Shown here: one piece after another, positions 51,659 to 56,757 of the stretch
Layout: every line of letters starts with the position of its first letter
Numbering within the stretch: the stretch's first letter is position 1
Assembly (NCBI GenBank): GCA_947503105.1
Contig: CANNCM010000001.1
Coordinates: 248,001 to 312,000 of the forward strand
Origin: an uncultured Flavobacteriaceae bacterium
GTDB lineage: Bacteria; Bacteroidota; Bacteroidia; Flavobacteriales; Flavobacteriaceae
Length of the DNA: 64,000 nucleotides
Direction of reading: 5' to 3'
Made by a program: the position numbers and the translations under genes
Notes under the pieces: generated by a model
The model's database searches: none
The model's input: only the letters and a program-made list of their open reading frames with translations
Told to the model about the DNA's origin: nothing

Positions 51659-54499
51659 ATGGCGCAACAAAAACGCTTATTTCTTCTTGATGCCTATGCT
51701 CTTATTTTTAGGGGCTACTATGCATTTATCAAAAACCCAAGAATCAACTCAAAGGGGCTAGATACTTCTGCAATTCTTGGGTTTACAAACTCTTTGTTGG
51801 ATGTTATAAAACGAGAGCGTCCAGATCATTTGGCCGTTTGTTTTGATAAAGGAGGAAGTGCAGATCGTTTAGAGGTTTTTCCAGAATATAAAGCAAATCG
51901 TGATGAAACCCCCGAAGGGATTAAAGTTGCGGTTCCCTACATCTATAAAATATTGGAAGCCATGCATATCCCAATTATGGTCAAAGAAGGTTATGAAGCC
52001 GACGATATTATTGGTACACTCGCCAAAAAAGCTGAAAAAGAGGGCTATCAGACCTACATGGTAACTCCTGATAAAGATTTTGCTCAACTTGTCAGTGACA
52101 ATATTTTCATGTACCGCCCAATGTTTGGTGGCGGGTATGAAACATGGGGTGTCGAAGAGGTTAAAGAAAAATTTGAGGTTCAAGATCCAAAACAAGTCAT
52201 TGACTTTTTGGGAATGAAAGGCGATGCTGTTGATAATATCCCTGGACTTCCTGGTGTTGGCGACAAAACAGCCAAAAAATTTATCAATCTTTATGGCAGC
52301 ATGGAAGGGCTCATTGAAAACACCCACGAGCTTAAAGGTAAAATGAAAGAAAAAGTTGAAGCCAATGCAGAACTCGGATTGCTTTCAAAAAAACTGGCCA
52401 CAATTTTATTGGATGTCCCTGTTGACTTTGATGCCAAAAATTTTGAACTAGACCAACCAGACCATGACAAAGTAAATGAAATTTTTCAAGAACTGGAATT
52501 CAGACGTTTGATTGAAAATTTCAAAAAAACCTTTGCAATAAACAACACTAGTACTTCTGAAACAGAAACTATATCTTCAGAAAAAACAACTCCAAAAGCC
52601 ACAAAAAACACAACAGCAGGAACAGGTCAGTTTTCGCTTTTTGATGCGCCACAAGAAGACAACAATCCAACGGCCTCGTTTGAAAGATCAACAATTAAGT
52701 CTGTAGCACACTTTTATCAATTTATTGATAGTGATTTCGCTATGGATCTATTTATCAAACAACTTTTGGAGAAAAAATCGGTTTGTTTTGATACTGAAAC
52801 AACCGCCCTCAACGCTCTTGAAGCAACGCTGGTTGGAATTGCTTTTTCGTGGGAGGCACACAAAGGATATTATGTGCCATTTCCAGAAGATCAAGACAAA
52901 GCGCAGCAACGAATTGAACAACTTAGGCCTTTCTTTGAAAATTCAAACATTGAAAAAATAGGTCAAAATTTAAAATATGATATCAAAGTGTTGAATAAAT
53001 ACAACCTTTCTGTAGAAGGCCCTTTATTTGATACTATGATTGCGCATTATCTTATCAATCCAGATCGGCGACATAATATGAATATTTTGGCAGAAACTTA
53101 CCTCAACTACACGCCTATGGCCATTGAGGAGTTGATTGGAAAAAAAGGGAAACATCAAAAATCGATGCGGAGTGTAGGCTTGGAAACAATTACCGAATAT
53201 GCTGTTGAGGATGCCGATATCACATTTCAATTGGCTCAGCATTTCAAGAAAGAAATGTCTGATGCGAATACACTAAATCTTTTTAATTCTATTGAAATTC
53301 CATTAATAAAAGTACTCGCTTCTATGGAATTAGAAGGGATTCGGTTAGATGTTGATTTCCTCAAAAGTTTGTCTTTAGATTTAAATAAAGACATCAAAAC
53401 TCTTGAACAAAAAATATTTGATACCGCAGGAGAGGTTTTTAATATTGCATCACCAAAACAATTGGGTGTGATTTTGTTTGAAAAATTAAACCTCGTTGAT
53501 AAGCCAAAAAAAACAAAAACAGGGCAATACAGCACCGCCGAAGACGTGCTTTCGTATTTGGCTAAAGACCATGAAATTATCAGAAATATTTTGAAATATA
53601 GAGCACTAGCGAAACTAAAAAGCACCTATGTTGATGCATTGCCAGAACAAGTTTTGGAGAGAACTGGACGAATCCATACGGAGTATTTGCAAACTGTTGC
53701 CGCTACAGGGCGTTTAAGCAGCATCAATCCAAATCTTCAAAACATTCCTATACGAACAGAACGTGGGCGTCAAGTTCGAAAAGCATTTGTACCAAGAAAT
53801 GAAAATTATATTTTGCTTGCAGCAGATTATTCTCAAATTGAACTGCGTGTTATTGCCGCTTTAAGTGAAGAGGAAACCATGATTGAAGCCTTTAAAAATG
53901 GGGAAGATATTCATGCCTCTACGGCTTCTAAAGTATTCAATGTGCCAATTTCTGAAGTCAATCGCGAACAGCGAAGCAATGCAAAAACCGTAAATTTTGG
54001 TATTATCTATGGCGTTTCTGCCTTTGGATTGAGCAATCAAACGGATTTAAACAGAACAGAAGCCAAGGCGCTTATTGACACCTACTATGCTACTTATCCA
54101 AAATTACGAGCATATATTGCAGATCAAGTTGATTTTGCAAGAGACAATGGTTATGTCAAAACAATATCTGATCGCCGTAGATATTTAAAAGATATCCATT
54201 CTAGAAATGCCGTTGTTCGAGGCGCTGCTGAGCGTAATGCCGTGAATGCGCCAATTCAGGGAAGTGCAGCGGATATCATCAAAATTGCGATGATTAATAT
54301 TCACAGAAAACTCAACGAAGACGGTTTCAAAAGCAAGATGCTTTTACAAGTGCATGACGAACTCGTTTTTGATGTTTATAAACCTGAGCTCCAAAGTATT
54401 AAAGCAATGATAAAAGCGGAAATGGAAAATGCGTACACCATGGTGGTTCCGCTAGACGTAGAAGTGGACAGCGGTGAAAACTGGTTAGAAGCCCATTAA
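51659..54499 (+). CDS. polA: DNA polymerase I
   Basis: 946 aa from the ATG at 51659-51661; the frame extends 27 codons further back into the MFS gene, which is rejected. Three domains: 5'-3' exonuclease (about 1-290, 'FLLDAYALIFRGYYAF', 'KEGYEADDIIGTLA', 'PGLPGVGDKTAKKF'), 3'-5' exonuclease (about 355-550, intact 'VCFDTETTALNAL'), and polymerase (about 570-946, 'ATGRLSSINPNLQNIPIRT', 'LAADYSQIELRVIAALS', 'LLQVHDELVFDVYK'). The proofreading Asp/Glu are kept. The last 54 bases (54446-54499) are duplicated exactly at 55496-55549. Confidence 0.98.
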   Translation: MAQQKRLFLLDAYALIFRGYYAFIKNPRINSKGLDTSAILGFTNSLLDVIKRERPDHLAVCFDKGGSADRLEVFPEYKANRDETPEGIKVAVPYIYKILEAMHIPIMVKEGYEADDIIGTLAKKAEKEGYQTYMVTPDKDFAQLVSDNIFMYRPMFGGGYETWGVEEVKEKFEVQDPKQVIDFLGMKGDAVDNIPGLPGVGDKTAKKFINLYGSMEGLIENTHELKGKMKEKVEANAELGLLSKKLATILLDVPVDFDAKNFELDQPDHDKVNEIFQELEFRRLIENFKKTFAINNTSTSETETISSEKTTPKATKNTTAGTGQFSLFDAPQEDNNPTASFERSTIKSVAHFYQFIDSDFAMDLFIKQLLEKKSVCFDTETTALNALEATLVGIAFSWEAHKGYYVPFPEDQDKAQQRIEQLRPFFENSNIEKIGQNLKYDIKVLNKYNLSVEGPLFDTMIAHYLINPDRRHNMNILAETYLNYTPMAIEELIGKKGKHQKSMRSVGLETITEYAVEDADITFQLAQHFKKEMSDANTLNLFNSIEIPLIKVLASMELEGIRLDVDFLKSLSLDLNKDIKTLEQKIFDTAGEVFNIASPKQLGVILFEKLNLVDKPKKTKTGQYSTAEDVLSYLAKDHEIIRNILKYRALAKLKSTYVDALPEQVLERTGRIHTEYLQTVAATGRLSSINPNLQNIPIRTERGRQVRKAFVPRNENYILLAADYSQIELRVIAALSEEETMIEAFKNGEDIHASTASKVFNVPISEVNREQRSNAKTVNFGIIYGVSAFGLSNQTDLNRTEAKALIDTYYATYPKLRAYIADQVDFARDNGYVKTISDRRRYLKDIHSRNAVVRGAAERNAVNAPIQGSAADIIKIAMINIHRKLNEDGFKSKMLLQVHDELVFDVYKPELQSIKAMIKAEMENAYTMVVPLDVEVDSGENWLEAH
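54446..54499 (+). repeat. 54-bp direct repeat, copy 1 (polA 3' end)
   Basis: Begins exactly at the codon GTT of 'VVPLDVEV' and runs through the polA stop TAA. Identical in all 54 positions to 55496-55549. Flanks differ on both sides (preceding base G here, T there; following base C here, A there), so this is the full extent. The start is GTTCCGCTAGACGTAGAAGT. Confidence 0.95.
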
Positions 54500-54528
54500 C
54501 TTTAAATGTTAAAGTCTTTATTTTTTTT
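54499..54528 (+). terminator. Probable terminator downstream of polA
   Basis: ACTTTAA (54499-54505), loop ATG, TTAAAGT (54509-54515), followed by CTTTATTTTTTTT. The stem is short and AT-rich but the T-tract is long. It begins at the last base of the polA stop, inside the inserted segment. Confidence 0.5.
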
Positions 54529-54754
54529 GGAACCCTATTCTTTTTTTTACTAAGTTTATACTGATTATGACCCCAAGTCTAAATCTTCAAAAGTAACTTA
54601 ACTGAAGTTTTAGCAATTATTTTATTTGAATTTAAGTGGATCTTGGGAAACTAGAGTGCTGTGGCACTTAAACAAAAAAGACTTTGTAAATGGATATCAA
54701 TGATTTGATGAAAAAGAATTCCAAATAAGCTTAAATTAAATATTTTAAGCAGCG

Positions 54755-55054
54755 CTAATTTAGCTCCCTATTCTTCCAAGTTTTAAGGTCTCTTTTGGTA
54801 TGCAAAACAGTCAGAACTTCTACAATGTTTTCTTTCAAAATATAATGAATTCCAAATGGAAACCCTTTTATATATCTTACTCGGGTATTTTTATACTTTT
54901 TCTGAAACAAGGCAGGATTTTTTGTAATAACATCAAATTCGTTATATAAGCTTTCCAAGAATCTATCTGTAATATGAGGTGCTTCTAAATCGTAATAATC
55001 AACTACTTGCTGAATATCTTCTTTAGCAAGTACACGAATATGAATTTGAAACAT
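54755..55054 (-). CDS. RelE/ParE-family toxin
   Basis: 99 aa with the RelE/ParE layout: 'FQIHIRVLAKEDIQQVVDYYD' (strand 1 and helix 1, first 21 residues, cited in part), 'ITDRFLESLYNEFDVITKNPALFQKKYKNTRVRYIKGFPFGIHYIL' in blocks, with the 'PALF..KY' and 'FPFGIHY' stretches typical of ParE-like members, then 'IVEVLTVLHTKRD'. ParE toxins poison gyrase, RelE toxins cut mRNA at the ribosome; which applies cannot be read from this sequence. It begins 3 bp after the antitoxin stop. A weak AT-rich hairpin at 54729-54750 may end the transcript. Confidence 0.87.
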   Translation of the reverse strand: MFQIHIRVLAKEDIQQVVDYYDLEAPHITDRFLESLYNEFDVITKNPALFQKKYKNTRVRYIKGFPFGIHYILKENIVEVLTVLHTKRDLKTWKNRELN

Positions 55055-55057
55055 GTA

Positions 55058-55273
55058 TTATTTACGCTTTATAGAAGATTTTAATTCATCAAGTGTTATA
55101 AAGTTGCTTGGGTTTTGTTCGGCTTCGGCAAGGCGTTCGTCCAAAACTTTTTTATGGGCAGAACTCAAAGAAGACTGTTGCAGTTTTTCAACTATATACA
55201 ACTGAAAATCTTCCAAAGTTTTAAAATGGTTCTTAGATAAATTAATGTTTTCCTCAAAAGAAATTGTAGTCAT
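55058..55273 (-). CDS. Antitoxin partner of the RelE/ParE toxin
   Basis: 71 aa from the ATG at 55271-55273; a GTG directly before it (55274-55276) is the alternative start. The sequence is short, charged and mostly helical: 'NLSKNHFKTLEDFQLYIVEKLQ', in two parts, then 'SAHKKVLDERLAEAEQNPSNFITLDELKSSIKRK'. The C-terminal block with 'RLAEAEQNP' and 'LDELKSSI' is typical of the small addiction-module proteins that precede ParE toxins. It has no clear DNA-binding fold. Located 3 bp upstream of the toxin on the same strand, which is the standard order. Confidence 0.82.
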   Translation of the reverse strand: MTTISFEENINLSKNHFKTLEDFQLYIVEKLQQSSLSSAHKKVLDERLAEAEQNPSNFITLDELKSSIKRK

Positions 55274-55291
55274 CACTAATTATTTTATAAT

Positions 55292-55325
55292 CAAAGATAG
55301 CAAAAATCAAACCATTTTATTACAA
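55292..55325 (-). promoter_or_regulatory. Candidate promoter of the toxin-antitoxin operon
   Basis: On the minus strand TTG (55323-55325), 23-nt spacer (the upper limit), TATCTTTG (55292-55299), 18 nt before the antitoxin ATG. The -7 match is perfect. Confidence 0.5.
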
Positions 55326-55495
55326 GAGCCAAAAAATTAAAAGAAGATGACTTAAATGATCTTTTCATAAACCCATAAATAAAAATTTCTAAATTTATAT
55401 AAGCAGGAAATATAGTACTGCTCTAAAATATGAACAAAGCATTAGTTTTAATTGTGTACAGGTTCTTCACGGCCCCTCGATTACAGAAAGCTATT

Positions 55496-55549
55496 GTTCC
55501 GCTAGACGTAGAAGTGGACAGCGGTGAAAACTGGTTAGAAGCCCATTAA
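55496..55549 (+). repeat. 54-bp direct repeat, copy 2
   Basis: Exact second copy of the polA end, in the same orientation. It is not preceded by polA coding sequence: codons before GTT read Leu-Gln-Lys-Ala-Ile, not Tyr-Thr-Met-Val. Its last four bases include the stop codon of odhB (55546-55548 on the minus strand). Confidence 0.95.
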
Positions 55550-56757
55550 AGCTCCAAAGCGTTCATCACATCATTGTCCATCAAAAACTCTTGAGGGTTT
55601 TCTAGAGCTTCTTTAACAGCAACAAGAAACCCAACCGATTCTTTTCCATCTATAATACGATGATCGTAAGAAAGTGCAACATACATCATAGGGCGTATTT
55701 CTACCTTACCATCAACAGCCACTGGTCGTTCAATAATGTTATGCATGCCCAAAATTCCACTTTGTGGAGGATTAATAATTGGTGTCGATAGCATACTTCC
55801 AAAGACGCCACCATTAGAAATGGTAAATGTTCCTCCTGTCATTTCATCAACAGTAATTTGCCCATCTCTAGCACGAATAGCCAAACGTTTCACTTCAGAT
55901 TCTACGCCTCTAAATGTTAGATGTTCGGCATTTCTTATGACTGGAACCATAAGTCCTTTTGGTCCAGAAACCGCAATGCTGATATCACAAAAATCGTAGG
56001 AAATCATCTCCTTTCCATCAATCATAGAATTGACAGCAGGAAAGAGTTTAAGAGCACGAACAACGGCTAAAGTAAAGAAACTCATAAAGCCAAGTCCAAC
56101 GCCGTGTTTATCTTTAAACGTCTCTTTGTAGTGGTTTCTAAGTTCGAAAATAGGCGACATATCGACTTCATTGAAAGTCGTTAGCATGGCCGTTTCATTT
56201 TTGGCAGACACTAATCGTTCTGCAACTTTTCTGCGCAACATAGAAAGTTTTGAACGCGTTACGCCTCGTCCCTCAACATCAACTTTTTGCCCCATAGAAG
56301 GCACTGCTTTTACAGCATCATCTTTGGTAATACGTCCGTCTTTTCCTGTCCCAGAAATCGTAGTGGCATCAATGCCTTTTTCTGCTAATATTTTTTTGGC
56401 GGCAGGGCTTGCCGTTCCCGTTGCATACGTATCGTTGGTTGTCGTTGTGACTGGAGTTGCAGCTACTGGTTTTGGGGCATCGGCTGCGACTGGTGTTGAA
56501 GCATCACCTTCTGGTTTTGTAGCACTTGTATCTATAAGACAAACAACTGCTCCAACCTCAACAGCGTCACCTTCTTCTGCTTTGAGGGTGATTGTTCCGC
56601 TAACTTCTGCAGGAAGTTCAAGCGTTGCTTTGTCGCTATCAACTTCGGCAATGGCCTGGTCTTTTTCGACATAATCGCCATCTTGAACTAGCCATTCTGC
56701 TATTTCAACTTCTGTTATAGACTCGCCCGGGGAAGGCACTTTCATTTCTAAAATCAT
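55546..56757 (-). CDS. odhB: 2-oxoglutarate dehydrogenase E2 (dihydrolipoyl succinyltransferase)
   Basis: 403 aa from the ATG at 56755-56757; the frame runs 18 codons further back into odhA, rejected because ATG 56757 directly follows the odhA stop. Domains: one lipoyl domain (about 1-80, lipoyl Lys43 in '[11 protein letters not shown]'), an Ala/Pro/Thr-rich linker, a peripheral subunit-binding domain ('[20 protein letters not shown]') and the catalytic domain (about 180-403) with '[16 protein letters not shown]', where His and Asp are catalytic. It transfers succinyl groups to CoA in the TCA cycle. Its stop TAA lies inside repeat copy 2. Confidence 0.96.

What the first reader, a model, noticed from the sequence alone, without database searches (positions are those of the whole stretch)
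54446..55549. Perfect 54-bp duplication of the polA 3' end brackets a 1-kb toxin-antitoxin insert
The last 17 codons plus stop of polA occur twice, identically, 1050 bp apart and in the same orientation. Between the copies are a ParE/RelE-type toxin-antitoxin pair and otherwise empty AT-rich DNA. Islands that integrate by a tyrosine recombinase typically reconstitute the 3' end of their target gene and leave the original end as a second copy. I know of such targets mainly in tRNA and a few protein genes; polA as a target would be noteworthy. Absence of drift in 54 bp, including third codon positions, implies recent insertion, ongoing conversion or an assembly effect.
Basis: partly seen in the sequence, partly recalled or inferred. 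Interest (0 to 1): 0.78.

Follow-up and report, generated by a model that had tools for sequence, protein, structure and literature searches.

The report
Toxin-antitoxin insert behind polA
A one-kilobase piece of foreign DNA with a toxin-antitoxin pair has slipped in behind the DNA polymerase I gene of a flavobacterium-like bacterium, leaving a perfect second copy of the gene's last 54 letters, and a few relatives show other inserts at the same gene end.

Summary
The last 54 bp of polA recur identically 1,050 bp downstream. The 996 bp between them hold a ParE-type toxin, its antitoxin and AT-rich DNA. It is an insertion: in 9 of 10 same-genus genomes (the tenth had no polA match) polA's stop overlaps odhB's, with one copy and no toxin-antitoxin match on the locus. 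Those species differ from this one at 13-18 of 54 positions, so entry was probably recent. polA's 3' end is hit rarely but repeatedly: partial second copies occur in 4 of 397 family genomes (this one included) and two more in a phylum sample. Control gene ends gave 0 of 354 (infB) and 0 of 349 (ruvB). Without the window's own genome the excess is borderline (p 0.047). One phylum case (G716) looks like a transposon with a 54-bp target duplication, so the repeat alone does not prove an integrase. No integrase lies in this insert. Integron-like integrases sit directly behind polA in four other genomes, without a detected distal copy. Best reading: a shrunken, integrase-less element at a gene-end attachment site (about 0.5). 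Recombination-borne addition is the main rival. An integrase acting at polA is not shown.

The parts
51659..54499 (+). polA, DNA polymerase I (946 aa), intact
   Evidence: ORF; end aligned with polA ends of relatives
54446..54499 (+). proximal repeat copy: last 17 codons and stop of polA (attL-like)
54500..55495 (.). 996-bp insert, 28.6% GC; the region has one match in the genome at E <= 0.001
   Evidence: absent from the 9 same-genus loci read
54755..55054 (-). ParE/RelE-type toxin, 99 aa
   Evidence: PF05016 E 3.2e-8; weak match to PDB 8c26 'Toxin ParE2' E 0.019; no NCBIfam match
55058..55276 (-). antitoxin, 72 aa, directly upstream of the toxin gene
   Evidence: PF09720 E 9.2e-7; TIGR02574 below cut-off
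55496..55549 (+). distal repeat copy, identical, in the place the polA end has in relatives (attR-like)
55546..56757 (-). odhB (2-oxoglutarate dehydrogenase E2; name from the finding and recall), convergent; its stop overlaps the distal TAA

Best explanation
A small, integrase-less mobile remnant carrying a type II toxin-antitoxin pair was added at the 3' end of polA. The 54-bp repeat is the att identity block: one copy completes polA, the other lies at the odhB side, so neither gene is damaged. The likeliest agent is a site-specific recombinase of the kind that targets 3' gene ends, now lost from the element or acting in trans. The toxin-antitoxin pair would penalise loss of the element. Shown: insertion, empty site, intact flanking genes, protein families, recurrent use of the site. 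Inferred: recombinase, att role, recent entry, stabilisation by the toxin-antitoxin pair.
For: Perfect repeat that ends at the stop. Empty site in the 9 same-genus genomes with a polA match, of 10 examined. Second polA ends also in G288, G189 (three further copies: about 139, 20-22 and 191 nt), G246 (on another contig) and G470, each ending at or within a base or two of the stop with no clear similarity beyond it, and a degraded one in G029. Partial copies in 4 of 397 family genomes against 0 of 354 and 0 of 349 for two control gene ends (Fisher one-sided p 0.017; 3 of 396, p 0.047, without the window's own genome). Stacking as in G189 is typical of attachment sites (recalled). Published identity blocks at internal gene sites reach about 250 bp, with a replacement gene end in attP (PMC10111431, passages). 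Tyrosine recombinase genes start 46-50 bp behind the polA stop in G125, G327, G232 and G264.
Against: No integrase was found in the G288, G189, G246 or G470 stretches fetched (HMM search), and none is known in this insert. No distal polA copy was detected in the four genomes with an integrase behind polA (one polA-end match each, plus a chance match in G125); in G125 and G327 that integrase scores best with Xer/integron models, and of the 30 best loci of its kin only 3 are behind polA. Left ends of the copies vary from about 20 to 195 bp. In 80 further named polA loci (of 584 found, capped list), none had a copy above background or an integrase in the 0.1-10 kb of downstream DNA held (mean 8.7 kb). 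In G189 the later copies resemble the genome's own polA end more than a congener's, so they need not be imported.
Confidence: 0.5

Rival explanations
1. Recombination-borne addition: incoming DNA with a polA 3' end recombined at polA by homology, while its other end joined inside the native polA end, leaving the old end behind as a second copy. No dedicated enzyme is needed.
For: No integrase found in the G288, G189, G246 and G470 stretches. Variable left ends of the copies. In G470 the distal copy is closer to congener G800 (162/192) than the proximal end is (151/192), while the polA body is closest to G800 (509/600), as if the proximal end came in with the insert. Hotspots without mobile elements that evolve by recombination at flanking core genes are published (PMC5635113, passages).
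Against: In G288, G189, G246 and G470 the copies end at or beside the stop. In this genome the two copies are identical, so the donor would have to be conspecific. The G470 shift is not significant by itself (p 0.06 and 0.19) and also fits an integrase whose attP carries a replacement end.
Confidence: 0.27
2. Transposition with a long target duplication: the 54 bp is a target-site duplication of a transposon whose transposase is gone.
For: In distant G716 an element with 14-bp perfect inverted ends duplicated 54-55 bp of the same polA end; its left end occurs at a second locus. Long duplications for IS1182 elements are recalled from ISfinder; the one member looked up has 4 bp (PMC3281130, passages).
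Against: The insert here has no terminal inverted repeats (best 7 of 14; 1564 of 2000 shuffles do as well), no further copy in the genome, and besides the toxin and antitoxin only one frame of 50 aa or more, a 50-aa one that was not scanned. In G716 itself the right end was found once only and the two junctions lie on separate contigs.
Confidence: 0.13
3. Assembly artefact: a free 1,050-bp circle or another locus sharing the 54 bp was joined into polA-odhB.
For: Identity over all 54 bp; read data could not be seen.
Against: 54 bp is shorter than usual reads; the contig is 604 kb and the region has one match in the genome; similar architecture recurs in unrelated assemblies.
Confidence: 0.05
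4. Stray integron cassette from a polA-linked integron.
For: Integron-like integrases lie directly behind polA in G125, G327, G232 and G264; in G125 a same-strand gene series with repeats follows.
Against: The best match to that integrase in this genome is E 3.4e-25, against E about 3e-128 or lower in the 30 best genomes, so it probably reflects one of the Xer genes. Cassette insertion would not be expected to duplicate 54 bp. No attC-like repeat was recognised by eye in the insert.
Confidence: 0.05

Closest known systems
Integrative elements that use internal sites near the 3' end of a protein gene (icd-type phages and islands)
   Same: Target gene end repeated at both borders, gene left intact, empty site in relatives, repeat longer than a minimal core (PMC10111431 passages).
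   Different: Insert of about 1 kb without integrase; target is polA; left boundary differs between genomes; cognate recombinase unknown.
Recombination hotspots lacking mobile elements (PMC5635113 passages)
   Same: Accessory DNA between two conserved genes, no mobility gene.
   Different: A partial copy of the flanking gene remains, which simple double exchange would not leave (inference).
Insertion sequences with very long target duplications (probable case found here in G716)
   Same: 54-bp identical duplication at the same gene end.
   Different: No inverted ends, recognised transposase or second copy in this genome.
Type II toxin-antitoxin modules of the ParE/RelE group with Unstab_antitox-type antitoxins
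   Same: Both protein families, antitoxin first, 3-nt gap.
   Different: Ordinary pair; only the setting is unusual.

Membership tests
Gene-3'-end-targeting integrative element | Empty site with one copy in relatives | tested here: met
   9 of 10 same-genus genomes examined; the tenth, G005 (73% complete), had no polA match
Gene-3'-end-targeting integrative element | Direct repeat completes the target gene at one border and marks the other | tested here: met
Gene-3'-end-targeting integrative element | Integrase gene in the element | tested here: not met
   the two genes are toxin and antitoxin; the genome's three PF00589 hits are on other contigs
Gene-3'-end-targeting integrative element | Cognate integrase elsewhere in the genome with the same att | tested here: inconclusive
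   two are XerD and XerC-like; the third, on C4, has its own 20- and 27-bp repeats 32.6-32.9 kb away and no convincing match to the 54 bp in 75 kb of C4
Gene-3'-end-targeting integrative element | Site used repeatedly | tested here: met
   G288, G189, G246 (unlinked contig), G470, degraded G029; rare, and only borderline above controls without the window's genome
Gene-3'-end-targeting integrative element | Excision to a circle and restored empty site | not testable with these tools
   no reads or cultures
Insertion sequence with long target duplication | Terminal inverted repeats | tested here: not met
Insertion sequence with long target duplication | Further copies in the genome | tested here: not met
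   one match of the 1,201-bp region at E <= 0.001
Type II toxin-antitoxin module (ParE-like) | Toxin and antitoxin domains in one operon-like pair | tested here: met
   both above Pfam cut-offs, same strand, 3-nt gap
Type II toxin-antitoxin module (ParE-like) | Toxicity neutralised by the partner | not testable with these tools
   needs expression
Integron cassette | Integron integrase in the genome and attC site | tested here: inconclusive
   only a low-level match to the integrase in this genome, E 3.4e-25; attC not searched by model

The most novel reading that the evidence does not exclude
The 3' end of polA is a general docking site in Bacteroidota for very small, integrase-less elements, often with toxin-antitoxin pairs, that move by a recombinase in trans or by host recombination between polA ends and stack behind a core replication gene without harming it.
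Probability: 0.2. Interest if true: 0.65.

Novelty: new member of a known kind. Interest (0 to 1): 0.45.

Why it matters
Protein-coding core genes are less familiar than tRNA genes as landing sites (recalled). If polA is one, its 3' end is a place to look for new small elements and perhaps for their recombinase, and it offers a neutral insertion site in Bacteroidota. The case also warns that a perfect gene-end repeat can come from transposition: G716 shows a 54-55-bp duplication of the same gene end around what looks like a transposon.

Tried and rejected
Toxin relatives by pattern scan: none in genome contigs or viral contigs. Viral polA ends: 155 viral stretches encoded a relative, 80 were kept, and I checked the reading frames of 35 of those 80; none was a short 3' fragment except where the locus edge cuts the frame (L117, L133 and L145 among them). 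A search of the loci then held with this genome's three integrases gave no viral hit. polA ends in 62 phage and 77 plasmid records were all under 60% identical. Literature, listings and abstract beginnings only: searches (25 of 75 papers listed; 7; 5) showed no paper on polA as an attachment site; mostly matched words such as 'polar', so it is weak. The polA passages of PMC10111431 are unrelated, PMC12884075 does not mention polA, searches gave nothing on the point, and one paper I wanted is not held. Terminal inverted repeats in the insert: rejected.

Rows dropped before counting: one search lists second matches in 18 genomes; 14 of these have only matches with E 0.15-0.995, counted as chance, and G186's lies in a separate 438-aa frame. 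In one search, G206, G380, G460, G600 and G632 match inside other long frames (698-970 aa) and G186 again in its separate frame. In one search one weak match (L350, 22 aa, E 0.008) was counted as chance. The 390 polA matches include two weak ones (G323, G418); 388 are at E <= 0.01. The second copy of the window's own genome passes E <= 0.01 with the 199-aa and the profile query; its value with the 44-aa query was not printed. G716 is counted as a probable transposon, not as support for an integrase. The G029 copy was found only by ungapped DNA comparison (20/24, 26/36, 36/58; best on the reverse strand 16, 22, 31). The 80 loci come from the top of the ranked list, not at random; two of them are short (937 and 2,025 bp).
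Full report
What is there. polA (51659-54499) and odhB (55546-56757, opposite strand) are separated by a 996-bp stretch that starts right after polA's stop and ends at a second copy of polA's last 54 bp. The copies are identical, nothing beyond their borders matches, and the distal copy supplies the base overlap with odhB's stop. The stretch is 28.6% GC (window 36.5%). It encodes, on the minus strand, an antitoxin (PF09720) followed after 3 nt by a ParE-type toxin (PF05016). The region has one match in the 2.16-Mb, 31-contig genome.

It is an insertion. I searched 60 relatives with the polA end (56 matched) and read the junctions of the 29 relatives whose loci were fetched. Ten of the 60 share the genus; G005 had no polA match. 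In the other nine, polA's stop overlaps odhB's stop, there is one polA end and no toxin-antitoxin match on the locus (3.3-3.6 kb each). Their 54-bp ends differ from this genome's at 13 to 18 positions, an N counted as a difference in two of them. Two identical copies here therefore mean a recent event, conversion, or an assembly effect. With zero changes in 54 sites a distance above about 0.056 is unlikely at the 5% level, against a Jukes-Cantor distance of 0.38 to G003 over the same 54 bp.

The site recurs, rarely. The last 44 aa of polA matched 390 of 397 family genomes at E <= 1, 388 of them at E <= 0.01. Four of the 397 (this one, G288, G189, G246) have a partial second copy at E <= 0.01 in at least one search. 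A profile over 395 phylum genomes (389 matched; the sample overlaps the first) added G470 and G716. The same test with infB (342 of 354 matched) and ruvB (345 of 349) gave no second match. 4 of 390 against 0 of 687 has p 0.017. The window's genome was chosen for this feature; without it 3 of 396 against 0 of 701 has p 0.047. So the excess is modest, and only two control genes, in overlapping genomes, were used. Of 80 polA loci with up to 9.5 kb downstream, one (G029) has a degraded copy. Of 80 further named loci, some of them probably the same genomes, none has one above background.

Anatomy of the other cases. G288: 131 aligned nt at 80% identity behind a 5.1-kb insert with what looks like a SusC/SusD pair (names recalled); 7 of 14 changed codons are synonymous. 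G189: three further copies of about 139, 20-22 and 191 nt over 12 kb. G246: 119 nt, the last 72 with one change, but on another contig, so linkage is not shown; the next gene pair behind its polA is NTP_transf_2 and HepT-like. G470: 195 nt at 81% behind a 531-bp insert, then a PemK/MazF-type toxin and a neighbour that, by eye, is the one next to polA in its congeners. Of four congeners, one has polA overlapping that neighbour, one a 43-bp gap, and two a further gene between. No third polA end follows the toxin in G470 (best 14 of 23). In G288, G189, G246 and G470 the copies end at or within a base or two of the stop. In G470, 18 of 26 changed codons are synonymous, which suggests the two ends diverged while coding, that is in two lineages. 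There the distal copy looks native and the proximal end imported, as an attP with a replacement end or a recombining donor would leave it, but the statistics are weak (p 0.06 and 0.19). In G189 the later copies are closer to the genome's own polA end (101/120 and 106/120) than to that of congener G369 (81/120 and 88/120), which fits a local origin.

A warning case. In G716 the same polA end is duplicated over 54-55 identical bases around an element with 14-bp perfect inverted ends. Its left end also lies in an unrelated frame on a third contig, so it is probably a multicopy transposon. Against this, its right end was found only once and the two junctions are on separate contigs. The insert of the window has no such ends.

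Who could have moved it. The genome's three PF00589 genes are on other contigs: XerD over its NCBIfam cut-off, a XerC-like protein below it, and a third with no NCBIfam match at E <= 1e-10. The third, on C4, has 20- and 27-bp repeats 32.6-32.9 kb away, and the C4 stretch has no convincing match to the polA end. In G125, G327, G232 and G264 a tyrosine recombinase gene starts 46-50 bp behind the polA stop, G162 has a remnant about 1.5 kb behind it, and in G025 one lies 6.3 kb downstream on the same contig. The G125 and G327 proteins score best with Xer and integron integrase models but below their cut-offs. The G125 gene is followed by same-strand genes with repeats of up to about 100 bp between them. 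Matches to the G125 protein occur in 391 of 397 family genomes at E <= 1e-20, a threshold that Xer proteins probably also pass; among the 30 best loci three are behind polA. No distal polA copy was detected in these four genomes: each has one polA-end match, and G125 a second at E 0.75, counted as chance. So they do not prove an integrase that uses polA as att.

Verdict. The finding is a real insertion, probably recent, at a gene end that is used rarely but repeatedly. Known att blocks inside genes can be this long (PMC10111431, passages). Hotspots without mobility genes are also known (PMC5635113, passages). I saw no paper on polA as a target in the listings and 81 of an open-access library, which is weak evidence of novelty.

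Changes made on re-checking: the control is now also given without the window's own genome, insert lengths of G470 and G288 were corrected, the own integrases were named by a family search, and results against the reading (G189 origin, G288 codons, G716 right end) were added.

Noticed in passing
L194 (G125:C19), L266/L280 (G232), L283 (G264), L195 (G327): Integron-like tyrosine recombinase directly behind polA, in G125 followed by same-strand genes separated by repeats of up to about 100 bp; in four other loci of the 30 best it lies beside what looks like dnaG (recalled from sequence).
   Followed up: partly
L109:3621-3815, L110:1-200, L307: Probable transposon with ends CCTGACTTCATACA and a 54-55-bp target duplication in the polA end of G716; its left end also lies in a DUF1016-like ORF (name recalled), its right end was found once.
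   Followed up: partly
G000:C4 about 14.7-47.5 kb (L086, L111): Probable island with a 429-aa integrase, genes that look metal-related (recalled), and 20- and 27-bp direct repeats 32.6-32.9 kb apart.
   Followed up: partly
L083 (G189): Three further polA ends over 12 kb, two of them with stops in frame and one of only about 20-22 bp, between ordinary-looking genes.
   Followed up: partly
window 55427-55549 (+): The insert's right end reads in frame into the distal polA end, giving a 40-aa open frame; probably chance.
   Followed up: no
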